From: Alteromonas sp. V450
GTDB lineage: Bacteria; Pseudomonadota; Gammaproteobacteria; Enterobacterales; Alteromonadaceae
Length of the DNA stretch: 64,000 nucleotides
NCBI RefSeq assembly: GCF_001885075.1
Contig: NZ_MODU01000004.1
Coordinates: 2,232,001 to 2,296,000 of the forward strand
Direction of reading: 5' to 3'
The notes under the pieces were generated by a model that was given only the letters and a program-made list of their open reading frames with translations, did not search any database and was not told the DNA's origin. The translations under genes were made by a program, and so were the position numbers. This document shows positions 44,898 through 61,569 of this stretch, in pieces (positions within the stretch are counted from its first letter, which is position 1; every line of letters starts with the position of its first letter).

Positions 44898-46259
44898 TTA
44901 GTCACTACTCTTAATATCTTCGAGATGATACTTGTCTATTAAAGAATACAGAGTAGGTCTTGTTACACCGAGCAACTCAGCAGTTCTAGACATATTGCCC
45001 TCTGCTTTTTGGTGTGCTCTTCTGATTGCGCGACTCTCGGCAATTTCACGGACTTCTCGTAAGTTCAGAGTTTCAGGTTCATCGTCTGCGTCTACAGCCA
45101 TCAAGCCCAAGTCATCAGGCTGGATAACCGTGCCCTCAGCCATAATTACAGCTGATTTCAGTTTATTTTGCATTTCACGGATGTTACCCGGCCATTGATG
45201 TGCCATCATTGCATTAACCGCGGATTCTGAGAAACTCTTCGCTTTTGCTTTAAATTCTTCTCGGTACATATTAAGAAACGTTCGCGCGAGCAGGATCACA
45301 TCTTGATCTCGTTCCCTTAGCGGCGGGATCACAATTGGCATTTCACCAACGCGATAATAAAGATCTTCTCTGAACGTTTCCTCAGCAACCATATTTTGCA
45401 AGTTTCTGTGCGTAGCGCAGATTACTCTGATATCTACAGGGATTTCACTTCGTCCGCCAACACGCTCTATAACCCTTTCTTGCAAAAAGCGTAACATTTT
45501 TGCCTGTAAACCAATTGGCATATCGCCAATCTCATCCAGAAACAGTGTCCCACCTTGCGCTGTTTCAATTTTACCAACCGTCGTTTTATTTGCGCCAGTA
45601 AATGCACCTTTCTCATAACCAAACAACTCACTTTCTAGTAAATTTTCAGGTATCGATGCACAATTAATAGCTACAAAAGGCTTATCTCTGCGTGAGCTGT
45701 TCTCGTGAATACTGCGGGCAAACACTTCCTTTCCCGTTCCACTTTCACCTAAAAGCAGCGTACTAATATCGGTATTAGCAATTTTCTCAGCACGACGAAC
45801 AACCTTTTGAATTGCTTCGCTATTTCCAATGATCCTAGACATGCCGGTTCGAGTGCGCGCAAGAATGCTATTTTCTAACTCAAGCTTCGCTAGGTTAATC
45901 GCTCGGTGTACTAGAAGTTTTATCGTGTCAGAATCGATAGGCTTTTGATAAAAATCATAAGCACCGAAATCGATTGCTTTTAGCGCGTTTTGTTTGTCAT
46001 TGTTGCCTGTTACGACAATAACTTTTGTACGAGGTGCTAGAGATATTATATCGTGAAGAATACGCAACCCTTCGGATGCATTTGCTGGGTCGGGTGGAAG
46101 ACCAAGATCTAGCGTGACCACTTTGGGCTCAAATCGACGAAGCTGTGCAATCGCTGAAGCATGATCACCAGCAAAGACGACATTATAATCAGTCAAACTC
46201 CATTTTAACTGTTTTTGAATGCCTATGTCGTCGTCCACAACGAGTATCGTGTCAGTCAT
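44898..46259 (-). CDS. prsR: PrsR-type sigma-54 response regulator
   Basis: A 453-residue NtrC-family regulator: a receiver domain (about 3-120, phosphoacceptor Asp in T-L-D-L-G-L-P), an AAA+ domain (about 140-370) with Walker A G-E-S-G-T-G-K-E and the sigma-54 contact G-A-F-T-G-A, and a Fis-type helix-turn-helix at the C-terminus (M-S-R-T-A-E-L-L-G-V-T-R-P-T-L-Y). The overall form matches the regulator of PEP-CTERM/exosortase systems (PrsR), and its partner kinase gene lies 74 bp upstream. It would switch on sigma-54 promoters of exopolysaccharide or PEP-CTERM genes, which are not in this window. Confidence 0.9.
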   Translation of the reverse strand: MTDTILVVDDDIGIQKQLKWSLTDYNVVFAGDHASAIAQLRRFEPKVVTLDLGLPPDPANASEGLRILHDIISLAPRTKVIVVTGNNDKQNALKAIDFGAYDFYQKPIDSDTIKLLVHRAINLAKLELENSILARTRTGMSRIIGNSEAIQKVVRRAEKIANTDISTLLLGESGTGKEVFARSIHENSSRRDKPFVAINCASIPENLLESELFGYEKGAFTGANKTTVGKIETAQGGTLFLDEIGDMPIGLQAKMLRFLQERVIERVGGRSEIPVDIRVICATHRNLQNMVAEETFREDLYYRVGEMPIVIPPLRERDQDVILLARTFLNMYREEFKAKAKSFSESAVNAMMAHQWPGNIREMQNKLKSAVIMAEGTVIQPDDLGLMAVDADDEPETLNLREVREIAESRAIRRAHQKAEGNMSRTAELLGVTRPTLYSLIDKYHLEDIKSSD

Positions 46260-46333
46260 TTCATCATCCTATTAAATTGCGCCTTCCTTTGCAGTTACAC
46301 GCGTGTACTTTACTTTGATAATTAGCGTTGTTA

Positions 46334-48361
46334 TTAGTTTATCGGAAAATAAAGAGTAAAACAGCTACCTTTACCCACCTCACTTTGAACAGTCAGTTTG
46401 CCGCCAATAGATTCGATGTAGGTTTTAGCATCGTAGGCACCTATTCCCATGCCTGCATTTCCTTTTGTAGTGTCAAAAGGCTTGAATAACCTTTCATCAA
46501 CAAAAGTCTGCTCCATACCCACGCCAGTATCTTCGATTAACACAAGTTGAAACTGAGCATCAGCATCAACCGTTATCACAATATCAACGTGCCCTGTTTC
46601 TGGTGTTGCTTGCTGCGCGTTACTGATTAAGTGGAACAAAACATTCCCCACTTTCTCCTTGTCTAAATCAACTGACTTTTCGGAAACAAAATGGACTTTA
46701 GGTATTGGCAATATGGAAGAACAGCGCTTTTCAACAACATTGTCGATAATTTCTGAAAGAAGAAAGTTTGAATTCACTCCCTCTTCAACGGCTTTCTTAT
46801 CTGTTAATTGCTTGAGCATCTTCTCCATGCGAGATTTCGTATGCTCTAGTGTTTCAAATGTATCGTTAATAAAGTCTGGATTGTGTTTATGCTGTTGGGC
46901 ATTGGCAAGTATTAAATCAACCTGCGCCAGCACATTCTTTAAGTCATGTAAAACAAACGCCGACATTCTATTGAAGGCAGCAAACTGCGCGTTTTCAGCT
47001 ACTACTTGCGCCGCTTCATGATGTTGAATAAACGTACCTACTTGTTCAGAGACGGCCTTCAAATAGTCTTTTACTTCCCAATTCAGGTTGACTTTTCTTT
47101 CTTCACTTGACGCAAGAACAGCGAACCCCCATAGCCCACCATCTTTCAGTAACGGTACAAAAAGTTGATACCCCCATTCTTTCAACGCCTCTCTGTTGAG
47201 TTTGAGCCCCTGATAATCAAAAGGCTTGACTGAGTACGCGTCTGTATCAATTATCCACCCGTTTTTACCGCTGTATTCAACAAGTTCTGATATGATTTCG
47301 CCTGCCCGTTTACTGTTTTGTCTAGGAGCCGCGGCTGCGATGGGCTCGTATCCATCTTTTGTGATCTTGTAAAGTAACCCTGAATCGTACTGTATCGCGT
47401 TTAACAAGCCAGTTAGACCGGCGTAATGAACGTCAGCAGAGGAGTTTCCTGCTTTTGTCAGCCACTTAGTCAGCTTTACCCATTCCACGCGATAATCAAA
47501 TTGATTAGCAAAAAAGTGTTTAGTGATAAAAACTTTTATTTTTGTCCGAAAAGCATTGGACAAGAGTACGGTGGCTAACAATGCAAAAGAGAGCACGACA
47601 AGGATGATTTGGACCGTTGCTCCCCAATTGCCCCCCATGTAATTAATGACGTAGCCAATTACTGCCATGACAAACAGGTAGCCGCCCGCAACGAGCAGTA
47701 GTGAACTGTGCAATACAACATCACGAGAGATAAAGATATCAATGCCCCAATGATGAATTCTACGTATAGACACAACGAGCAAAGGCATGAGCGCGAAATA
47801 AATGTAGCCTCTCGCAGCGATATAACCTACCTCTATTTGATTTACCATGGTTGCGTTTGCATAAGTAACAAACTCAAACAAATTGGTTGCGCCCAAGTAA
47901 ATAACCAAAGGTTTGAACGCCCACTGCTCACTGCCCGCTTGTCGGTAAACCACTTCTAATAGCACTAACACTTCTAACGACAATATGATGAGTACTAAAA
48001 AACTCCACGACGGATTTACGGACAGTAGAAAAGGAGCGATTAGCGCAAATAGTGGCGGCCCAATAATGACCAACGTTATTGGGCGCTTTATAACATCAGA
48101 GAAGTTCGAAAAATTTGTTTGCAAACACCCCGATAAAAACAATAGCCATGCTAGTTGCTTAAGTACGTCTGCATTCAACAACGATGTTAACGAGACCGGT
48201 CCAAACAAAAAAGTAACAAGGCTGGAAGACCATGCGAACGTGGCTGCAGTCGCAAACACAAGAAGGTGCTTTGCAACGCCGGGGTTTCGGACAGTTAACA
48301 ACAATAATAACAGCGCAAGATGCGCTAGGCTGCTTAGCGCATAGCCTACGTCTGAAATCAT
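46334..48361 (-). CDS. prsK: PrsK-type membrane histidine kinase
   Basis: A 675-residue sensor kinase. About eight helices cover residues 5-270, then a GAF-like domain (about 310-450), a dimerisation domain whose acceptor histidine is in F-V-L-H-D-L-K-N-V-L, and a HATPase domain with N-A-Q-Q-A, E-D-T-G-V-G-M and G-M-G-I-G-A-Y motifs. It matches the PEP-CTERM-system kinase PrsK and is paired with prsR. The stimulus is unknown. It follows a FabH-like gene by 40 bp and may share its promoter. Confidence 0.9.
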   Translation of the reverse strand: MISDVGYALSSLAHLALLLLLLTVRNPGVAKHLLVFATAATFAWSSSLVTFLFGPVSLTSLLNADVLKQLAWLLFLSGCLQTNFSNFSDVIKRPITLVIIGPPLFALIAPFLLSVNPSWSFLVLIILSLEVLVLLEVVYRQAGSEQWAFKPLVIYLGATNLFEFVTYANATMVNQIEVGYIAARGYIYFALMPLLVVSIRRIHHWGIDIFISRDVVLHSSLLLVAGGYLFVMAVIGYVINYMGGNWGATVQIILVVLSFALLATVLLSNAFRTKIKVFITKHFFANQFDYRVEWVKLTKWLTKAGNSSADVHYAGLTGLLNAIQYDSGLLYKITKDGYEPIAAAAPRQNSKRAGEIISELVEYSGKNGWIIDTDAYSVKPFDYQGLKLNREALKEWGYQLFVPLLKDGGLWGFAVLASSEERKVNLNWEVKDYLKAVSEQVGTFIQHHEAAQVVAENAQFAAFNRMSAFVLHDLKNVLAQVDLILANAQQHKHNPDFINDTFETLEHTKSRMEKMLKQLTDKKAVEEGVNSNFLLSEIIDNVVEKRCSSILPIPKVHFVSEKSVDLDKEKVGNVLFHLISNAQQATPETGHVDIVITVDADAQFQLVLIEDTGVGMEQTFVDERLFKPFDTTKGNAGMGIGAYDAKTYIESIGGKLTVQSEVGKGSCFTLYFPIN

Positions 48362-48401
48362 TAATACCTGCCCACCCTGTTAAAATCTTACGCTAGCTAG
48401 T

Positions 48402-49526
48402 TTATCGTTTTCGAACCACGAGAGAACCAATCGAATACCCGGCACCAAAAGAGCACAAAACGCCCACGTCGCCAGCAACAAGGTCTTTATGGTTTAATCC
48501 GAACGCGATAACGGAACCTGCCGATGCAGTATTTGCATATTCATCCAACACAATTGGCGCTTCTTCTCGACTCGCATCTCTACCAAGTAAACGCTTGCAG
48601 ATCAGCGTATTCATATTGATGTTTGCCTGATGAAGCCACCAGCGTTTCACACCCTCAGGCGTAATATCGTGGTGAGCCAAATGTGACTCAATGTGGGCTG
48701 CTGCAAGTGGGCACACCTCTTTGAATACTTTTCTGCCAGCTTGATGGAATAACTTGTCAGGTCCGTAGGGATCAACATCTTCCGCACGTGTCATATAACC
48801 AAAGTTCGATCGAATGTTGTTGGAAAATTTTGTCAGGGCCTTTGTGCTGAGCACGTCGTACACGTGCTCGCCTTTCGCAGTATCAGACAGCTCAATCACA
48901 GTTGCTGTAGCAACATCTCCAAATATGAAATGACTGTCGCGATCCGCATAGTTAATTTGAGGTGATACCAATTCAGGATTTATCACCAACACACGTTTTG
49001 CATTTCCCGCTAGCAACATTTCATAAGCGCGATGCATTCCGAACGTAGCGGCGGAGCAAGCAACTAACATATCAAAGCCAAACCCCTCAATATTCAGCGC
49101 TTCCTGAACTTCAATGGCAATAGCAGGATAAGCTCTTTGTGTATAAGCACACGAAACGATTACCGCATCAATGTCTTCGCTGGTAACGCTTGCCGATGCT
49201 AAAGCCAGCTTTGCCGCTTCTACTGCGATTTCAGCTTGGTGTGAAAGTTCATCGTCTCTACGTGGTGCGATTTTGGGCTTCATTCGCGAAATATCTAACG
49301 CACCTTCCTTTTTGTAAATATACCGGCTTTTTATCCCTGAGGCTTTTTCAATAAACTCGGCACTAGAATAAGGCAGTTCAACAGCATCACCGGCTTTAAT
49401 TTTATCTTTATTTTCAGCATTATGAGCGTCTACATAGGCGTTGTAGCTGCTTACCAGTTCTTCGTTTGTAATTTTTTCTTCTGGGTGCCAAACACCCACA
49501 CCGCTTATCACTACTTGTTGAGACAT
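48402..49526 (-). CDS. Beta-ketoacyl-ACP synthase III-like enzyme (FabH family)
   Basis: A 374-residue thiolase-fold condensing enzyme. The catalytic cysteine lies in L-V-A-C-S-A-A-T-F-G, the histidine in L-H-Q-A-N-I-N-M, and the asparagine in Y-A-N-T-A-S-A-G. Thus the Cys-His-Asn triad is complete. It is longer than FabH of E. coli (317) because of an insert at about residues 28-60 and a further stretch near 75-95, typical of FabH paralogues in marine gammaproteobacteria. It is not in a fatty-acid gene cluster. It may start long-chain or special acyl synthesis, or act on ketoacyl precursors; the primer specificity is not visible. Probably first gene of a unit with prsK and prsR. Confidence 0.85.
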   Translation of the reverse strand: MSQQVVISGVGVWHPEEKITNEELVSSYNAYVDAHNAENKDKIKAGDAVELPYSSAEFIEKASGIKSRYIYKKEGALDISRMKPKIAPRRDDELSHQAEIAVEAAKLALASASVTSEDIDAVIVSCAYTQRAYPAIAIEVQEALNIEGFGFDMLVACSAATFGMHRAYEMLLAGNAKRVLVINPELVSPQINYADRDSHFIFGDVATATVIELSDTAKGEHVYDVLSTKALTKFSNNIRSNFGYMTRAEDVDPYGPDKLFHQAGRKVFKEVCPLAAAHIESHLAHHDITPEGVKRWWLHQANINMNTLICKRLLGRDASREEAPIVLDEYANTASAGSVIAFGLNHKDLVAGDVGVLCSFGAGYSIGSLVVRKR

Positions 49527-50150: not shown

Positions 50151-51029
50151 ATGTCAAAACCAAAAATTGGTTTCATAGGTCTAGGTCTTATGGGCGGAAA
50201 TATGGTTGAAAACCTTTTGAATAAGGGGTTTCCAGTCACCGTAATGGACTTAAATTCAGACGCAGTTAACATGTGTGTAGATAAAGGCGCAAAAACAGCC
50301 TCATCTGGCAAGACGCTGGCAGAGAACGTTGATATTGTTATGCTGTGTTTAACCACTTCGGACATTGTCGAATCTGTCATGTATGCCAACGATGGCGTAA
50401 TTGCTGGGCTGCAAGAAGGCAGTGTTGTTATCGATTTTGGTACGTCTATTCCTTCATCAACGCGAAAGATAGGCGCCGACTTGAGCGCGAAGGGCGTTGA
50501 TATGATAGACGCGCCGCTTGGTCGTACACCTGCTCATGCAAAGGACGGTCTTCTTAATATCATGGCATCAGGAGACAAGACTGTTTTCGAGCGGATCAAG
50601 CCAGTGTTAGACGAACAAGGTGAAAATGTATTTTATCTTGGAGAGCTTGGCGCGGGCCACACCACAAAGCTTATCAATAATTTTATGGGTATGACGACGG
50701 TTTGCGCAATGTCTCAAGCGTTTGCCATTGCTGAAAAAGCAGGGGTAGATCGCCAGCAATTGTTCGATATCATGTCTGCAGGCCCCTCAAATTCACCTTT
50801 TATGCAGTTCTGCAAAAACTATGCAGTAGACAACAATAGTGATTTGGGTTTTTCTATCGCAAATGCAAACAAAGACTTGGGCTATTTCCTCAAAATGGTT
50901 GATGATTTAGGTACACAATCCAAAATTGCTGAAGGCTCTTCTGCGAATTTACAAGCGGCCTTCGACGCTGGAATGGGCGCAGGTAATGTACCGGAAATTT
51001 ACGACTACTTTTTATCTTTATCCAAATAA
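50151..51029 (+). CDS. NAD(P)-dependent beta-hydroxyacid dehydrogenase (HIBADH family)
   Basis: A 292-residue reductase. The Rossmann motif G-F-I-G-L-G-L-M-G-G-N-M is at the N-terminus, substrate-binding D-A-P-L-G-R-T-P-A lies mid-protein, and the catalytic lysine is in G-H-T-T-K-L-I-N-N-F. The family reduces or oxidises 3-hydroxyacids such as tartronate semialdehyde, and includes reductases of keto-uronates (DEH) in alginate breakdown. Together with the next gene, a hexuronate-type carrier, and the PL6-like protein, a role in uronate catabolism is likely. AAGAGGTAAAGAG precedes the ATG. Exact substrate unresolved. Confidence 0.85.
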   Translation: MSKPKIGFIGLGLMGGNMVENLLNKGFPVTVMDLNSDAVNMCVDKGAKTASSGKTLAENVDIVMLCLTTSDIVESVMYANDGVIAGLQEGSVVIDFGTSIPSSTRKIGADLSAKGVDMIDAPLGRTPAHAKDGLLNIMASGDKTVFERIKPVLDEQGENVFYLGELGAGHTTKLINNFMGMTTVCAMSQAFAIAEKAGVDRQQLFDIMSAGPSNSPFMQFCKNYAVDNNSDLGFSIANANKDLGYFLKMVDDLGTQSKIAEGSSANLQAAFDAGMGAGNVPEIYDYFLSLSK

Positions 51030-51081: not shown

Positions 51082-52392
51082 GTGAATATTAAAGGTTTAC
51101 GTTGGTGGGTAATTACCTTAATTGCTCTAGCAACAATAATTAATTACATAGATAGACAAGCACTGAGCGTGCTTTGGCCTGCTATTGTCGAAGATTTGTT
51201 TCCAGATGAATCTGCCCTAGAGCGTAAACAGATATACGCCAATATTTCGATTGTTTTCGTATTTTCATATGCATTTGGTCAAGCCATTTTCGGCAAGATT
51301 TTTGATTGGATAGGCACACGAATAGGCTTCGTGTTGTCCATCGGTGTATGGTCACTTGCCACTATTGCACATGCCTTCGCACAAGGAATGCTAAGCTTCA
51401 GTATCTTCAGAGGTATCTTGGGCATAGCGGAAGCAGGCAATTGGCCAGGGGCCACGAAAGGCAACGCAGAATGGTTCCCGACAAAGGAACGGGCGCTGGC
51501 GCAGGGAATATTCAATTCAGGAGCGGCAATTGGCGGTATTATTGCCTTTCCTATCATCGGATATCTTACCGTCCATTTTAACTGGCAAGCAGTTTTCATT
51601 ATTGTGGGTGTTATGGGTCTATTGTGGCTGCTTCCCTGGTTAATTATAGTGAAAGCGCCGCCTGCAATGCACGCATGGATAACAGACGAAGAAAAAGAAT
51701 ACATTCTGTCAGGGCAGCGAGAAACCGCAGAAACAGACGGCAATGAGAGCCTTAAAACGCTTGACGAATATAATCCAACAACAAAAGAAATATTATCTAG
51801 AAAACAAAGCTGGGGCGTTATTGTCGCGTCAGCCGCGATAGATCCTATTTGGTGGCTTTTTGTGTTTTGGATCCCTATTTATTTAAATGAAGTTTACGGC
51901 ATGAACGTGACCGAAATAGGTATCTACGGCTGGGTTCCTTACGTAGGGGCTATGCTTGGTGCGTGGTTCGGGGGCCTTCTAGCGCAAAATAGAATTTCCG
52001 CGGGATGGAGCACAGACAAAACTCGGAAATTAGTAATCACTCTAGGTTGCTTAATCATGCTACCCGCTTTGCTTGCCATGTCTAATCCAGGCGGCCCAAC
52101 TGTCGCAGTATTAATTATGGCTGTCATACTGTTTGGTTTTCAAACCGCGATAGGAAACGTGCAGACATTACCTAGTGACCTTTTTGGTAAAAAAGCAGTG
52201 GGCACGCTATCTGGTTTTGCAGGTATGGCGGCAAAACTGGGGGCTGTAGGACTGACGTCTTTAGTACCTTGGTTAACTGCTGATGGCAACTATACACCCG
52301 CTTTTGTTATCGGAGCTTCACTCGCTATCATTGCAATCGCCTCAATTTGGTTCCTCATTCCAAAAATAGAGCGATTAAAGTCCATCCATTAA
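51082..52392 (+). CDS. MFS transporter, hexuronate/sugar-acid type (ACS family)
   Basis: A 436-residue carrier with about twelve helices. The N-terminal R-W-W-V-I-T-L-I-A-L and I-N-Y-I-D-R-Q-A-L-S-V-L-W-P are characteristic of the anion:cation symporter family that includes ExuT and related sugar-acid carriers. It starts at GTG with AGAGAAG upstream, 52 bp after the dehydrogenase gene, and a strong terminator follows, so the two form an operon. It would import uronate monomers or unsaturated products. Substrate inferred from family and context. Confidence 0.88.
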   Translation: MNIKGLRWWVITLIALATIINYIDRQALSVLWPAIVEDLFPDESALERKQIYANISIVFVFSYAFGQAIFGKIFDWIGTRIGFVLSIGVWSLATIAHAFAQGMLSFSIFRGILGIAEAGNWPGATKGNAEWFPTKERALAQGIFNSGAAIGGIIAFPIIGYLTVHFNWQAVFIIVGVMGLLWLLPWLIIVKAPPAMHAWITDEEKEYILSGQRETAETDGNESLKTLDEYNPTTKEILSRKQSWGVIVASAAIDPIWWLFVFWIPIYLNEVYGMNVTEIGIYGWVPYVGAMLGAWFGGLLAQNRISAGWSTDKTRKLVITLGCLIMLPALLAMSNPGGPTVAVLIMAVILFGFQTAIGNVQTLPSDLFGKKAVGTLSGFAGMAAKLGAVGLTSLVPWLTADGNYTPAFVIGASLAIIAIASIWFLIPKIERLKSIH

Positions 52393-52399
52393 TTTGTCT

Positions 52400-52440
52400 G
52401 CGAAAAGAGGAGGCACTCGCCTTTCTCTTTTCGCTTTTCT
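52400..52440 (+). terminator. Rho-independent terminator after the MFS gene
   Basis: GCGAAAAGAG (52400-52409) and CTCTTTTCGC (52425-52434) form a perfect 10-bp stem with an inner GGC/GCC pair, followed by TTTTCT. It ends the dehydrogenase-carrier transcript. Confidence 0.85.
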
Positions 52441-52688: not shown

Positions 52689-55403
52689 ATGAAGAGTAAA
52701 GCGTTTGCACTTTGCGCAATAGCCGCAGCCATCACGGGATGTAATGTAGATTCTGATAATAATCCCAACAGTTTAGGCAGTATTACGTTGTCTGGAACAC
52801 CCACTTCCGGTGAAACGTTAACAGCCTCGGTAAGCGACCCGGATGGAATTGACGCTGCAGTTAGCTATTTTTGGTATGCAGATAACCAACTTATTGCAGA
52901 TGCAAGCGGCGAGAGCTTTACACTTACAGATGATCAAATTGGTGCGGCTATTACCGTGCAGGGTACTTATACCGACAACGGCGGTACCAACGAGTCTCAT
53001 ATCAGTGAGCCGACTGACGATGTAATGGCCATTGCATTTGACGCAAGTATTACTGTTTCCGGCGATGTAGTAGTAGGGAACACCATTACAGCGGTCGTCG
53101 CAGATGAGAATGGTTTTGAGCCATCAAGCATTGTTTATGTGTGGTTTGCTGATGACGTAGTGATTGAAAATGAGGTGACCTCAACACTAACGCTTTCTGA
53201 AAATGAATTTGGCAAGATCATCACTGTTTCAGCCACCTTCACTGATAGCCGAGGGTTCGATGAAGCACCCTTATCACTCCCCACGGCCCCTGTTAGCAGA
53301 GAAAATTCAGAGGGGGCTATTACCATTATTGGAACGCCCACTGTAGGCAATACGCTTACCTCAGAAATTGATGATGAAGATGGTGCTAACGGTGATATTA
53401 CGTATCAATGGTATGCCGACGAAAGCGCGATAGCCGGTGCAAGTCAAAGTACCTACATGGTTGAATCAAACCTTGTCGGACAAGTAATAACCGTCGAAGC
53501 ATCTTACACTGACGATAACGGTTTTGCAGAGGTGATTACGTCAGCGCCTACGATACCTGTTAATCAACAAGCCGTCGACGAAGCAGGTTCAATTGAGATC
53601 ACAGGCACAGCTCCGTACCTTGTGAACAGTGTTCTAACTGCGACGCTAACCGACAACAATGGCTTTGACGAAACTAACGTTGACTACACTTGGTTTGCTG
53701 ATGATGTAGCAATTCCAAATAGCAACAGCCGTTTCTTCACCCCAACTGCCAACGCAGGGGCAATCATCTCTGTTGAAGCGACCTATACCGATAATGACGG
53801 TTTTACCGGCTCAGCATCAGATGCGGTAGATACCATAGTATATACCGCTGTTGTTAACGATAAAGCAAGCCTAGAGAATGCGCTAAATAGCGGACTTTCA
53901 GATGGAGATGTATTGGGACTTAATACAAATGTTTATGCTGATTTAGCGCCAATTATGCTAACCAGTGCTGTGACGTTGACCGCAGTAGAAAGTGAAACTC
54001 CTGTTATCTCTGGTGAAGCATGCGTAAATATTGCCAGTACGGTTAATGGGGCATCAATAAAAGGCATTCGATTTGAAAACATTGATACGGCACTAGGTTC
54101 ATATTGTGAAAACGAGGCCGCTGCAGTTATCTATTCAGAAGGCAATAATTTCACTTTCACACACAATACAATGAACGGAGACCAAACCTCTTTAAATGAA
54201 GAAACCCACCATTGGCTTGTGGTTAACGGCGAAGACGCTTTAATTGAGCGCAATACATTTAGTAATAGAAACAATGCAGTAAAAGGCTCTGTTATAAAGC
54301 TTTCCTCATCTGGTCTTAATCATACTATTCAGTACAACTTGTTTGAAAATGCTGATAACGAAAACTTCAATCAGTCAAGCCTACTGCTTCTTAACTTGGG
54401 CAGCACCACTGGTGCAGATGCTGCTGTAAACGCTAATTTTGTTGTCCAATATAATCGTATTGATAATTTCATATCAGGTCGCCGTTTAATGCGCGTGCAA
54501 ACCTCTGGCGCCACGATAAAGGGAAACACTATTATTGACGCGACAGGCGGTATTTCTCTGGAAGACGGCGGCTTTAATACTGTTGCCGATAACATCATCA
54601 TTAGAACAACAGATATATCAGGGTCTGACGAGCGACCTAGTGGTGTATTGATAACGCCTCTTGGACATACTGTCACAAATAATTACATTACGGGTATCCG
54701 ATCTGGAAACAAAGAAGCCGGCGGCTTAGTCTTTACCGCGAACCCATTCTCGCAAGCCGATGGTGGTGTCCCTAATGCAGGTAACCAAGCAGTACTTGAC
54801 GGCAGTGGAGACTTAACGCTAACGGTTTCTCAAAATACCATCTTAAATTCAGTGCAACCTATAGTGTTTAGTACAGAAATTGGCAGCAAAGCCCCCGTAG
54901 GCGATTGTGATGAATTAACTGCAGAGAACGCGCCTACCCTCTATGCACTAACTAAGAACTTTTTTGTTATTGATTTTGACGCAAACGCCATTGCGAACGG
55001 TTTTAACGATGACGATAGGCTAACAACTTGGGGCTTGCCATTCGATTCCGAAGCAATAAGCAGCGACCATGCGTTTGAATACGACTGTGATCTCATCAAT
55101 CACAATGAATCATTCTTTTCCAACAACTTCGGCTTCACTGATAGCTATGCGTCTGGCGATGTTGAAGATGAGTCTTGGGTAGATATTCGCAACCTTAACG
55201 GAAATGGTAAATTCGACACCGATGGCGCTATCGACCAAAACCCCGCTGATAACGGGAAAGAAGCGCCTGAATTCATCACTGCACCTAATGGACTTATTGA
55301 GACTGACCCTAACGGTGCGCAAGCTATCGCCGGTGCAAAGGGACTCTACTACATTCAGGCTAACGATGTAGGAGCTGGCTCTACATGGACTGTAGATAAC
55401 TAA
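52689..55403 (+). CDS. PL6-like beta-helix lipoprotein with four Ig-like repeats and altered catalytic site
   Basis: A 904-residue lipoprotein: lipobox A-I-T-G-C with C18, four Ig-like repeats of about 90 residues (about 28-115, 118-205, 208-298, 300-385), then a right-handed parallel beta-helix of polysaccharide lyase family 6 type (about 386-750) and an Asp/Asn-rich end. PL6 enzymes (alginate lyase, chondroitinase B) use a Lys and an Arg 21 residues apart (Lys250, Arg271 in chondroitinase B). By local alignment these fall at Q604 and E625, with the same spacing, so both are replaced. It may be a binding protein or use other chemistry. It lies before a TonB receptor and has its own promoter. 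Confidence 0.75.
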   Translation: MKSKAFALCAIAAAITGCNVDSDNNPNSLGSITLSGTPTSGETLTASVSDPDGIDAAVSYFWYADNQLIADASGESFTLTDDQIGAAITVQGTYTDNGGTNESHISEPTDDVMAIAFDASITVSGDVVVGNTITAVVADENGFEPSSIVYVWFADDVVIENEVTSTLTLSENEFGKIITVSATFTDSRGFDEAPLSLPTAPVSRENSEGAITIIGTPTVGNTLTSEIDDEDGANGDITYQWYADESAIAGASQSTYMVESNLVGQVITVEASYTDDNGFAEVITSAPTIPVNQQAVDEAGSIEITGTAPYLVNSVLTATLTDNNGFDETNVDYTWFADDVAIPNSNSRFFTPTANAGAIISVEATYTDNDGFTGSASDAVDTIVYTAVVNDKASLENALNSGLSDGDVLGLNTNVYADLAPIMLTSAVTLTAVESETPVISGEACVNIASTVNGASIKGIRFENIDTALGSYCENEAAAVIYSEGNNFTFTHNTMNGDQTSLNEETHHWLVVNGEDALIERNTFSNRNNAVKGSVIKLSSSGLNHTIQYNLFENADNENFNQSSLLLLNLGSTTGADAAVNANFVVQYNRIDNFISGRRLMRVQTSGATIKGNTIIDATGGISLEDGGFNTVADNIIIRTTDISGSDERPSGVLITPLGHTVTNNYITGIRSGNKEAGGLVFTANPFSQADGGVPNAGNQAVLDGSGDLTLTVSQNTILNSVQPIVFSTEIGSKAPVGDCDELTAENAPTLYALTKNFFVIDFDANAIANGFNDDDRLTTWGLPFDSEAISSDHAFEYDCDLINHNESFFSNNFGFTDSYASGDVEDESWVDIRNLNGNGKFDTDGAIDQNPADNGKEAPEFITAPNGLIETDPNGAQAIAGAKGLYYIQANDVGAGSTWTVDN

Positions 55404-55441: not shown

Positions 55442-55466
55442 CACAGCGCCTTTATTGGCGCTTGTG
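55442..55466 (+). other. Stem-loop between the PL6-like and TonB receptor genes
   Basis: AGCGCC (55445-55450) pairs with GGCGCT (55457-55462), extended by CAC/GTG across one bulge. There is no T-run, and it ends about 17 bp before the receptor ribosome-binding site. It may stabilise or process the shared message. Confidence 0.45.
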
Positions 55467-58628: not shown

Positions 58629-60413
58629 TCATCGTTGCTTTATTTGCCACACAGTAACGGTACCGCTTACTTCGTTACCCACTACAAGGAGAGGTACACC
58701 GCTTGGGCTGTCTTCAGCACTTACAAACACCAGGCTTTCTGGTGCAAGGTCGCCAATAACGTTATCGCTTGTTAATCCTTCTGTAAGATCTCGGTTAATG
58801 ACATACTCTGCAAATTTTACGTCATATGGATTAGTAACATCGTAAACAAGAATACCGCCCATACGCTCGGTACCAATAAAAGCGTAAGTACGTTCGCCTA
58901 CCTGCCCCACTGTTAATGCTTCAGGCTCAGGCCCCTTATTCTCTGAGCGCGAATCCCCCGCATTTTCATCGTCACCGTTATTAAACTGTGCGCCATGCAC
59001 CGAAGCAGTAATACGCTCAAAATCATCACCAGAGTCATAAACCACTAGGCCATTTTGATCCCAGATAGTAAACGAGCGTGCACCGTATGCGTACGCAGCA
59101 TCATACTCTCCATCCCCATCATTATCTCCCATGGCTATCGTGACACGTAAATCATCGGCTTCACCGGTAGCTTGTAGCATTGCCAATTCAGAATTTGCTA
59201 AAGCAGTTAAATCTTCTACTTTAACCTCATCTGAATAAGCGAGGCACCCATCATCTTCATCATAATCAACACCACCTGCAGCGGTGCAGGCTGCCTCGTC
59301 AGCTACGTCAAAGAAATACTCTCGCGCATCGCCTTCATTAGCGGTAACAATAAAAGTTGCGTCTTTCCAAGTAAAATGTGCAACAGTATCAGGCTGATAA
59401 ACGCCATAAAGCCCCTGATATTGACCAAAGCTAACCGCATCATTTTCTTGAATGTCGATGTTAAGTCCAGCCCATGACTTAGTACCAAGACCAATAACGT
59501 CAATGGATAAATCTTCAAGGTCTAAAATTGCCAGGCCGTTGTTTTCCTGCAGGCTGATATAAGCCAAATCATTGGTCGTCGTAATGTATTCAGGTTCAAG
59601 GTCCTGCGCTACCGTCGTAACAATTACGTTGCCATTAATTGTTCGTCCTGATGGATTTGGAAACATCATCCCCTGTGCAACCAAAGCGGCTTTGCTATCA
59701 TTAAATGCACTAAAACCAACTGTTGTCGCGGTGTCATCGGGCTCGCCAGTTTCTAGAATGGCAATAACGCTTACCGAACCCTGTGGGTCAACCGCGTAAT
59801 CATCAGAAGGCTCGCCCTCATTTGCTACTAGTACCTTACTGCCGTCAGGCGTAAAAGTAACCATATCTGGCAATGCGCCGACTTCAACTGCATTTAAGAA
59901 AGTGGGAGTACTACTATTTAAACCGTTAAAGAATAATACGAAACCGTTATTTGTTTTTGTTGAAGCCGGCATGGCAACGGCCATTAAATCATCTTTTATC
60001 GCAATACTTGTAACGCTTCCAAGCTCAACATTCTCAATATTTTCAGGCAGGGTTATCGCCGTTGGCGTCAGCGTAACCGTGCCAATTGGATCAGGTAACG
60101 TGCCGGTTGTAACCGATGATGCTGGAATACTTGCTATTGTGTTCGTCTCACTATTCGTTGCATAAATAGTGGCCGTTTCTGCGTGATATTGAACAATCTC
60201 CGCGGCTGACTGATTCCCCAAAAATGCTCTACCCACAATGTCCATTGAAACACCGATGGACGCATCGGTACCAGGATTACCTTGCTCTCCTTGGGGACCT
60301 TGAGCTCCTGTGTCTCCTTGTTCCCCGTCATCCCCATCTAGACCACACCCCATAAGCGCTGACGAGACAATAAGCGAGAGTATTCCGTATTTTAACGTAA
60401 GTCGAATTGCCAT
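58629..60413 (-). CDS. Choice-of-anchor I family lipoprotein with collagen-like repeat
   Basis: A 594-residue lipoprotein: lipobox A-L-M-G-C with C23, then nine Gly-X-Y triplets (about G24-D50, for example G-D-T-G-A-Q-G-P-Q), then a beta-propeller-like domain of the choice-of-anchor I type (T-P-D-G-S-K-V-L-V-A-N-E-G-E-P-S-D-D-Y is diagnostic). The Asp-rich D-N-D-G-D-G-E-Y-D segment could bind calcium. Related proteins are often extracellular and may have phosphatase or phytase-like folds; catalytic function is unproven. The collagen-like part probably acts as a spacer from the membrane. AAGGAAAG precedes the ATG. Confidence 0.82.
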   Translation of the reverse strand: MAIRLTLKYGILSLIVSSALMGCGLDGDDGEQGDTGAQGPQGEQGNPGTDASIGVSMDIVGRAFLGNQSAAEIVQYHAETATIYATNSETNTIASIPASSVTTGTLPDPIGTVTLTPTAITLPENIENVELGSVTSIAIKDDLMAVAMPASTKTNNGFVLFFNGLNSSTPTFLNAVEVGALPDMVTFTPDGSKVLVANEGEPSDDYAVDPQGSVSVIAILETGEPDDTATTVGFSAFNDSKAALVAQGMMFPNPSGRTINGNVIVTTVAQDLEPEYITTTNDLAYISLQENNGLAILDLEDLSIDVIGLGTKSWAGLNIDIQENDAVSFGQYQGLYGVYQPDTVAHFTWKDATFIVTANEGDAREYFFDVADEAACTAAGGVDYDEDDGCLAYSDEVKVEDLTALANSELAMLQATGEADDLRVTIAMGDNDGDGEYDAAYAYGARSFTIWDQNGLVVYDSGDDFERITASVHGAQFNNGDDENAGDSRSENKGPEPEALTVGQVGERTYAFIGTERMGGILVYDVTNPYDVKFAEYVINRDLTEGLTSDNVIGDLAPESLVFVSAEDSPSGVPLLVVGNEVSGTVTVWQIKQR

Positions 60414-60774
60414 TAACTTTCCTTATTTTTATACCCTGATCATTACGAAACAGATATTGACTTGTAGATACAATAAAACTAACAAATGATCATGCGTGAA
60501 TTTGGTGAGGAAGCGCTGTAAGCTTTACTTCCGTGTACAAACTAAAACCAGTTTATGACACTCGTATTAATATGGCAAAATACATGACAACCGCTAGTTT
60601 GAACAAGAACTGTTCTATATAAGTACTTATTATTGGCACGCTTCTACAGCAAATGCATCATAGCGTAATAACAGTTATTAATGACGACGTAGGAACGATG
60701 ACGGCAACCTGTTTAGAATATTGCTCGAGTTCACACTTCTTCACCGGATATAGAACGTTTGAAAGGATGAAAAA
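60414..60774. other. Divergent intergenic region
   Basis: It holds the 5' regions of the anchor-I lipoprotein gene and the M48 gene. A TTGGCACG word near 60633 resembles a sigma-54 -24 element, but the -12 part does not fit. No gene or clear promoter was recognised. Confidence 0.4.
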
Positions 60775-61569
60775 ATGAAATTGAAACTTGCAGTCACCGC
60801 AATCGTGACAGCGTTAGCCCTCTCAAGTTGTGCAACGTCGCCTACGGGAAGAAATCAGGTATTATTGTATTCAGAAGGTCAGCTTGCGCAAATGGGCGAT
60901 CAGGCTTTTACCGGTATGAAGGAAGAGCTCAAAATTTCAAATAAACCGGTACAAAATTCCTACGTTGAATGTGTTGCCAAAGCTATTACTGCCCAAGTAC
61001 CCGCCTCAGTATTCGATGGTGTATGGGAGGTTGTCGTTTTTGATGATGAACAAGTCAATGCGTTCGCTCTTCCTGGGGGTAAAATCGGCGTCTACACGGG
61101 CTTGCTGAATGTGGCACAAAACCAAGATCAACTCGCTGCTGTCATTGGTCATGAGGTGGGCCATGTTATTGCTGAACACGGCAACGAGCGCATGTCACAA
61201 TCAACGCTAATAAACATTGGCACACAAGCCGTAGGACAAGTTCTTGCTGCTAATGAAGTTTCCCAATCAGGTCCAATTATGGCGGCAATCGGATTAGGCG
61301 TGCAGGTTGGTGTTCAGTTGCCTTTTAGCCGTACTCATGAGTCAGAGGCTGATCTTATAGGGCTTCAATTAATGGCGAGATCAGGGTTTGATCCGCGACA
61401 GTCTGTTGATCTTTGGCAAAATATGGAAGCGGCAAGTAGCGGTAATCGTCCTATGGAATTATTATCGACTCACCCTGCACCGCAAACAAGAATAGAGAAC
61501 CTGAAAGCCAACATGTCGAGCGCCTTCACAGATTTCCAATCTTCTTCATCAAGGCCACGATGTAGCTAA
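60775..61569 (+). CDS. M48-family metalloprotease lipoprotein (LoiP/YggG-like)
   Basis: A 264-residue lipoprotein protease with lipobox L-S-S-C (C19). The zinc site H-E-V-G-H lies near residue 125, and the third ligand Glu is in H-E-S-E-A-D-L-I-G. It lacks the TPR extension of BepA, so it is closer to LoiP. Such enzymes degrade misfolded outer-membrane proteins in the periplasm. AAGGATG precedes the ATG. It is monocistronic, with a strong terminator. Confidence 0.92.
   Translation: MKLKLAVTAIVTALALSSCATSPTGRNQVLLYSEGQLAQMGDQAFTGMKEELKISNKPVQNSYVECVAKAITAQVPASVFDGVWEVVVFDDEQVNAFALPGGKIGVYTGLLNVAQNQDQLAAVIGHEVGHVIAEHGNERMSQSTLINIGTQAVGQVLAANEVSQSGPIMAAIGLGVQVGVQLPFSRTHESEADLIGLQLMARSGFDPRQSVDLWQNMEAASSGNRPMELLSTHPAPQTRIENLKANMSSAFTDFQSSSSRPRCS

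What the first reader, a model, noticed from the sequence alone, without database searches (positions are those of the whole stretch)
52689..55403. PL6-fold lipoprotein with both catalytic residues replaced
The positions of the essential Lys and Arg fall on Q604 and E625 at the same 21-residue spacing, while the surrounding beta-helix pattern is kept. Four Ig-like repeats hold it away from the membrane. It may be a surface binding protein that hands polysaccharide to the TonB receptor, or a lyase with new chemistry.
Basis: partly seen in the sequence, partly recalled or inferred. Interest (0 to 1): 0.75.

Follow-up and report, generated by a model that had tools for sequence, protein, structure and literature searches.

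The report
Alginate lyase with swapped catalytic residues
This marine bacterial gene encodes a probably surface-anchored relative of a proven seaweed-alginate-cutting enzyme that works although both amino acids thought essential in its family are replaced; the oddity is real but already in print, and how the enzyme cuts is still an open, testable question.

Summary
The 904-aa ORF at 52689-55403 has a lipobox-like Cys, four Ig-like repeats and a PL6-type beta-helix in which Gln604 and Glu625 sit where PL6 lyases have catalytic Lys and Arg, 21 apart. It is no local decay: in 210 aligned relatives Gln604 is kept in 210, Glu625 in 207 (2 Asp, 1 Arg) and Arg599, at a canonical Ca-ligand Glu, in 209. 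They separate on one branch from 32 distinct Lys/Arg PL6 genes, all Glu599/Lys604/Arg625. The binding-protein reading is not favoured. The group holds CAZy subfamily PL6_3, and two members were purified and measured as endo-alginate lyases. One is AlyM2 (PMC8953905): genes whose ends match its published primers are 64-65% identical to this protein over full length, keep Gln/Glu and lie beside the same TonB receptor gene. That paper already reports Lys to Gln and a changed Arg. The other, MASE_04180 (PMC4954714), is the exception type: Gly599/Gln604/Arg625. Best reading: a surface endo-alginate lyase with an unsolved non-canonical mechanism. Added here: an Arg at 599 or 625 in all 242 sequences compared (a possible charge swap) and a short list of residues to mutate.

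The parts
52689..55403 (+). PL6_3-type alginate lyase gene, 904 aa
52689..52742 (+). signal peptide and lipobox-like AAITGC ending at Cys18
   Evidence: by eye; G17 and C18 invariant in 36 aligned sequences; codon checked
52761..53852 (+). four Ig-like repeats (residues about 25-118, 117-207, 208-297, 297-388)
   Evidence: alignment; model; Foldseek
53841..55400 (+). PL6-type beta-helix domain, residues 385-904
   Evidence: model
54249..54251 (+). Arg521, invariant in the clade
   Evidence: 210 of 210; codon
54483..54485 (+). Arg599, at a canonical Ca-ligand Glu
   Evidence: 209 of 210; codon
54498..54500 (+). Gln604, at the catalytic Lys position
   Evidence: 210 of 210; codon
54561..54563 (+). 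Glu625, at the catalytic Arg position
   Evidence: 207 of 210; codon
54564..54566 (+). Asp626, at the canonical His position (Asp 157, His 36, Asn 17 of 210)
   Evidence: codon
55462..58521 (+). TonB-dependent receptor (TIGR01782); the true start may be a later ATG (inference)
   Evidence: conserved partner
55445..55462 (+). perfect inverted repeat in the gap between the two genes
52400..52434 (+). terminator-like hairpin between the MFS gene and the lyase gene
   Evidence: 15 such sites found, 9.1 expected, so weak evidence
51082..52392 (+). MFS transporter, 71-91% identical copies next to or near relatives of the gene in several loci
50151..51029 (+). NAD-binding reductase of the 2-hydroxy-3-oxopropionate reductase type; possible DEH reductase (inference)
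   Evidence: below NCBIfam cut-offs

Best explanation
The gene encodes an endo-acting alginate lyase of PL6 subfamily 3 (PL6_3), held on the outer membrane by a lipid anchor and four Ig-like spacers. It most likely cuts alginate outside the cell into short unsaturated oligosaccharides that the TonB receptor encoded next door imports. Catalysis does not use the Lys/Arg pair and Ca ligands of other PL6 enzymes. The most likely mechanism (inference) is a charge-swapped cleft: the Arg that canonical PL6 has at 625 is supplied from 599, with Glu at 625 and Gln at 604; Arg599 neutralises the +1 carboxylate, acts on the C5 proton, or both, with Glu625 or water as partner. Shown by tools: fold, residue swap, clade, gene neighbourhood. 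Shown by others on orthologues: endo-lyase activity. Inferred: that this very protein is active, is surface-exposed and feeds the receptor; and every catalytic assignment.
For: Published primers of AlyM2 (PMC8953905) match both gene ends exactly in L006 and L011 (L025 and L083 are the same gene as L011); L007 and L008 match the forward primer only. From the internal ATG the L006 and L011 genes are 910 aa, the length given for AlyM2; they are 64-65% identical to this protein over full length and have Q604/E625, with the receptor orthologue next door at 73.6-73.7%. AlyM2 was active on four alginate substrates, 11.7-29.7 U/mg by absorbance at 235 nm, mainly trisaccharides, with heat-inactivated control in the product assay. 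MASE_04180 is an endo-poly-MG lyase; its primers lead to L134:11077-13596, both encoded ends present, a protein of the same clade with Gln604. Invariance of a polar set across the clade fits a catalytic site. All 17 genomes of 196 that have the domain also have a Lys/Arg PL6. The own genome has PF14592, PF08787 and PF05426 lyases.
Against: Activity was measured on orthologues, not on this protein. The AlyM2 paper has no occurrence of 'mutant', so no PL6_3 residue is shown to be catalytic. In BcelPL6, Ala and Tyr at the Arg and Ala and His at the Lys were inactive (PMC6879350). MASE_04180 lacks R599 and has R625, so neither R599 nor E625 is essential in the same form throughout. The 235 nm assay used 60 ug/mL enzyme, so turnover may be modest. 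More distant members of the clade (6 of 6 loci examined) have no adjacent receptor match.
Confidence: 0.8

Rival explanations
1. A catalytically dead PL6-fold surface lipoprotein that binds alginate and hands it to the TonB receptor, standing in for the SusD that proteobacterial alginate clusters lack.
For: Both canonical catalytic residues and the Ca ligands are replaced; receptor gene adjacent in 12 of 12 close relatives; other Alteromonadaceae alginate loci carry Ig-lipoproteins with the same N-terminal repeats and another C-terminal domain; the domain also flanks a PL7 lyase with its motifs present; susD-like genes reported absent from the proteobacterial alginate clusters studied in PMC7874173 (passages).
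Against: AlyM2, an orthologue at 64-65% identity with the same Gln/Glu, is a measured endo-lyase; MASE_04180 of the same clade is active.
Confidence: 0.1
2. An active lyase whose catalytic residues lie outside the 599/604/625 cluster, for example among Arg521, Tyr549, Tyr588 and His660, as alginate lyases of other families use Tyr/His.
For: R521 and H660 are 210 of 210, Y549 207 and Y588 196 of 210, and all four are kept in the MASE_04180-type protein, which has lost R599 and E625; [quoted passage not shown]
Against: R521, Y549 and Y588 each stand directly before an Asn of the ladder and may be structural (inference); H660 occurs in some Lys/Arg PL6 too (3 of 17); R599, Q604 and E625 are as invariant.
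Confidence: 0.25
3. A lyase that has kept activity only weakly and serves in nature mainly as a surface binding site (dual role).
For: Lipobox, adjacent receptor gene; the AlyM2 assay used 60 ug/mL enzyme.
Against: AlyM2 converts alginate to about 80% trisaccharides; I found no binding data in the papers read.
Confidence: 0.15

Closest known systems
AlyM2, Pseudoalteromonas arctica M9 (PL6_3; PMC8953905)
   Same: 910 aa, four small beta-domains plus C-terminal PL6 helix; genes with its exact primer ends are 64-65% identical to this protein, keep Q604/E625 and lie beside the same TonB receptor gene; measured endo-alginate lyase
   Different: Different genus. The paper says Asp replaces the Arg; my alignments give Glu625, with Asp626 at the canonical His position. 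The words lipoprotein and TonB do not occur in its main text
MASE_04180, Alteromonas macleodii (PL6_3; PMC4954714)
   Same: Ig-lipoprotein with PL6 helix and Gln at the Lys position, in an alginate locus (sequence from an unnamed genus-mate genome matched by primers)
   Different: 30% identical; G599 and R625, the exception type (1 of 210); reported to act on poly-MG only
AlyGC, AlyF, BcelPL6, chondroitinase B (Lys/Arg PL6 lyases)
   Same: Beta-helix fold, Asn ladder, place of the cleft
   Different: Lys and Arg catalytic pair and Ca-ligand Glu; in the 32 distinct Lys/Arg genes sampled here always Glu599/Lys604/Arg625
SusD and surface glycan-binding proteins of Bacteroidetes
   Same: Lipoprotein gene beside a TonB receptor gene
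   Different: No SusD family row; PL6 fold with active orthologues

Membership tests
Polysaccharide lyase family 6 (fold level) | PL6 right-handed parallel beta-helix | tested here: met
Polysaccharide lyase family 6 (fold level) | Asparagine ladder | tested here: met
   N550, N589, N613, N635 and N665 in all rows of both groups
Canonical Lys/Arg PL6 (PL6_1/PL6_2 type) | Catalytic Lys and Arg, 21 apart | tested here: not met
   Q604 and E625
Canonical Lys/Arg PL6 (PL6_1/PL6_2 type) | Ca-ligand Glu pair before the Lys | tested here: not met
   G597 and R599 against E597 and E599 in 17 of 17
PL6 subfamily 3 | Clusters with MASE_04180 and AlyM2 | tested here: met
   AlyM2-type genes 64-65% identical; P0207, 87% identical to the MASE_04180-type protein, lies on the Gln/Glu side of the tree
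PL6 subfamily 3 | Gln at the Lys position | tested here: met
   Q604; the feature is stated in PMC8953905
PL6 subfamily 3 | Endo-alginate lyase activity | not testable with these tools
   Measured on AlyM2 and MASE_04180 by others
Pfam PF14592 Chondroitinase B | Score over the curated cut-off | tested here: not met
   No PF14592 row for this protein at E 0.001; relatives P0006, P0069 and P0101 pass the cut-off
SusD / surface glycan-binding protein | SusD family domain | tested here: not met
   No such row in Pfam or NCBIfam
SusD / surface glycan-binding protein | Lipoprotein gene beside a TonB receptor gene | tested here: met
   12 of 12 close relatives
Outer-membrane lipoprotein | Lipobox with Cys; surface exposure | tested here: inconclusive
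   AAITGC at 13-18 by eye, G17 C18 invariant in 36 sequences; exposure not testable here

The most novel reading that the evidence does not exclude
PL6_3 is a natural charge-swapped active site: the Arg moved from 625 to 599 and the Glu from 599 to 625, Lys became Gln and the Ca site was lost, giving a metal-independent beta-eliminase that uses Arg as base or neutraliser, as in PL1 pectate lyases (recalled), on an alginate-lyase scaffold. MASE_04180 (Gly599/Arg625) would be an intermediate or a reversion. The same machinery would then act twice around a PL7 domain in the fusion proteins.
Probability: 0.3. Interest if true: 0.6.

Novelty: new member of a known kind. Interest (0 to 1): 0.4.

Why it matters
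The catalytic machinery of PL6_3 is openly unsolved: the AlyM2 paper says that a distinct mechanism awaits confirmation. The clade-wide table here cuts the candidates to a handful (R599, Q604, E625, R521, Y549, Y588, H660), supplies a natural variant (the MASE_04180 type) and shows an Arg at 599 or 625 in every sequence compared. It is also a warning that 'catalytic residues missing' does not mean 'dead' in this fold.

Tried and rejected
Rejected: (1) a dead SusD-like binding protein, my own leading idea until, dropped because an orthologue is a measured lyase. (2) K537 as alternative catalytic Lys: 82 of 210 Lys, 75 Ser, 40 Thr, 13 Arg. (3) Sequencing error or local decay: the pattern is clade-wide. 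(4) A glycoside hydrolase with a Glu/Asp pair: considered on paper only; the AlyM2 assay detects unsaturated uronate, and the MASE_04180-type protein has Arg-Asn there.

Led nowhere: tandem-repeat search at DNA level (none); the third protein search, which was dominated by Ig-repeat proteins; none of its rows that I examined was an intermediate between the Lys/Arg and Gln/Glu forms, but I did not align them all. The solved-structure search for the tandem domain of the other Ig-lipoproteins gave nothing below E 0.19. The plasmid search gave 22 records, one with over 80% of the query covered, at 29% identity. No atomic coordinates were available, so I could not measure distances between 599, 604 and 625. 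Literature searches did not list the two key papers; 84 and 98 did. Only an open-licence library was searched, so I cannot say what else is in print.

Counting choices: P0211 and P0212 (fragments) were dropped before the 210 count; the two homologue lists were capped (one search listed 120 of 182, one search listed 120 of 174). Many of the 210 are near-copies: thinned at 72% identity, 54 domains remain, with Arg599 in 53, Gln604 in 54, Glu625 in 52 (1 Asp, 1 Arg). In the Lys/Arg set L128 (weak partial match, misaligned at these columns) was dropped, leaving 33 rows; two of these (L019, L129) are one gene, so 32 distinct, and 210 + 32 = 242. The Lys/Arg set comes from one bacterial family only. 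The Fisher value takes no account of relatedness, and the 74 genomes were read off one search's list at E 1e-40. The gene-neighbour labels are BLAST matches to labelled genes, most of whose labels I checked by Pfam.

Full report

IT IS A CLADE, NOT A DECAYED COPY. All 103 first-round homologues plus the query have Q604 and E625 (104 of 104). A second search widened this to 210 proteins after dropping two fragments: Q604 in 210, E625 in 207 (2 Asp, 1 Arg), R599 in 209 (1 Gly), R521 in 210, H660 in 210, R598 in 205, Y549 in 207, Y588 in 196. Thirty-two distinct PL6 genes (33 rows) from the same bacterial family, including the genome's own single PF14592 match, are Glu599/Lys604/Arg625 without exception. 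A maximum-likelihood tree of 54 thinned Gln-type and 33 Lys/Arg-type rows separates them on one branch with support 100/100; a quicker tree without the columns around the active site (and without the duplicate) gives the same split. The trees are unrooted and have long branches.

CONTEXT. The next gene is a TonB-dependent receptor of the TIGR01782 family. In 12 of 12 full-length relatives from sampled Alteromonadaceae genomes an orthologous receptor (72-81% identical) lies directly downstream. In six of these 12 loci (L079, L082, L083, L087, L088, L090) other alginate genes such as PL17, PL6, MFS, KDG kinase or KDPG aldolase lie around it (labels checked by Pfam). In six loci of more distant members (L091-L096; L095 ends at a contig end) neither labelled receptor matched a neighbour; L092 and L094 lie in alginate clusters, L093 beside a PL7 gene, L091 about 6 kb from a Lys/Arg PL6, and L095 and L096 show none of these labels. 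Among 196 genomes of the family 17 have the Gln-type domain, and all 17 also have a Lys/Arg PL6, against 74 of 196 overall (Fisher 1.8e-8, uncorrected for relatedness). The own genome also has a PF08787 and a PF05426 lyase.

THE TURN. I first favoured an inactive surface binding protein standing in for the SusD reported absent from proteobacterial alginate clusters (PMC7874173, passages). Two papers changed that. PMC4954714 (abstract, section 3 parts 1-4 of 5, and passages read) expressed MASE_04180 of Alteromonas macleodii, its one subfamily-3 enzyme, as an endo-poly-MG lyase. Its published forward primer occurs in 2 of 59 genus-mate genomes. In one of them it opens an 839-aa Ig-lipoprotein (L134:11077-13596); the other (L135) shows no such gene. 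That protein has the encoded start GATNQP and end PAQSN; its part from GATNQP on is 84.9 kDa with pI 4.05, against 103.2 kDa and pI 4.1 in the paper, where it was expressed as a thioredoxin fusion. It is 87% identical to P0207, which lies on the Gln-type side of the tree, and has G599, Q604 and R625: the exception type, 1 of 210. PMC8953905 (abstract, section 4 part 1, sections 18 and 28, and passages) describes AlyM2, 910 aa, subfamily PL6_3, purified and assayed at 235 nm: 11.7-29.7 U/mg on poly-M, poly-G, poly-MG and alginate, mainly trisaccharides. It states that the Lys is Gln and the Arg mostly Asp in PL6_3, and that a distinct mechanism awaits confirmation. AlyM2's primers match both gene ends exactly in L006 and L011 (L025 and L083 are the same gene as L011) and the forward end alone in L007 and L008. 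The L006 and L011 genes are 910 aa from the internal ATG, 64-65% identical to the window's protein over full length, with Q604/E625, and have the receptor orthologue next door at 73.6-73.7%.

READING. The window's protein is therefore most likely an active, surface-anchored endo-alginate lyase of PL6_3 feeding the adjacent receptor. This rests on orthology; the protein itself has not been assayed. One discrepancy with the paper: it names Asp as the residue at the Arg position, whereas the alignments here put Glu625 there and Asp626 at the canonical His; without coordinates I cannot say which side chain overlaps the Arg in space. Earlier genome papers count PL6 genes in such loci as lyases (PMC6431674 and PMC6262041, passages); whether their genes are this one I infer from gene order only.

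MECHANISM (inference). An Arg is present at 599 or at 625 in all 210 clade members and all 32 Lys/Arg genes: canonical E599/R625, Gln clade R599/E625 or D, MASE_04180 type G599/R625. This looks like a charge swap between neighbouring positions of the cleft and would allow one guanidinium to neutralise the carboxylate or act on the C5 proton, as Arg does in PL1 pectate lyases (recalled). Against a simple version: the MASE_04180 type has Arg-Asn at 625/626, so Glu625 cannot be a universal base. Residues kept in that protein and invariant or nearly so in the clade are R521, Y549, Y588, R598, Q604 and H660; some may be structural.

VERDICT. Real, correctly observed, and explained: a new member of a known, unusual subfamily whose oddity is already in print. 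Its interest lies in the unsolved mechanism, for which this analysis gives a short, testable residue list.

Noticed in passing
P0097-P0100, P0213-P0216: Eight proteins of 1529-1558 aa carry a PL7-type alginate lyase domain (PF08787) flanked by two PL6_3-type domains, each with Gln at the Lys position and Glu at the Arg position. The motifs RTELR/RSELR and QIH are present in all eight, YFKAG.Y.Q in seven (motifs recalled).
   Followed up: partly
L097-L110, for example L110:11364-13610 and L098:10536-12818: Alteromonadaceae loci without the PL6_3 gene, most with alginate genes, carry Ig-lipoproteins with the same N-terminal repeats and, instead of the beta-helix, a domain of about 210 aa (two copies in L110 and L098) with no clear sequence match in the PDB; in L110 the neighbouring receptor is 67.7% identical to the window's. 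Candidate surface binding proteins.
   Followed up: partly
55445-55462: Perfect inverted repeat AGCGCC-TTTATT-GGCGCT in the gap between the lyase and receptor genes; it might tune expression of the second gene.
   Followed up: no
44898-49526 and 58629-61569: The flanking genes (response regulator, histidine kinase, KAS III-like; choice-of-anchor I protein, M48 peptidase) are syntenic in L002, L004, L080 and L081, so the lyase-receptor pair sits at a fixed place in these relatives; in the own genome the canonical PL6 lies about 266 kb away.
   Followed up: no
L107:11994-15515, L118, L123-L127, L131: A separate group of PL6 proteins (668 to 1716 aa as read) keeps Glu/Lys/Arg with an RHG motif; possibly PL6_2 (not tested).
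   Followed up: no
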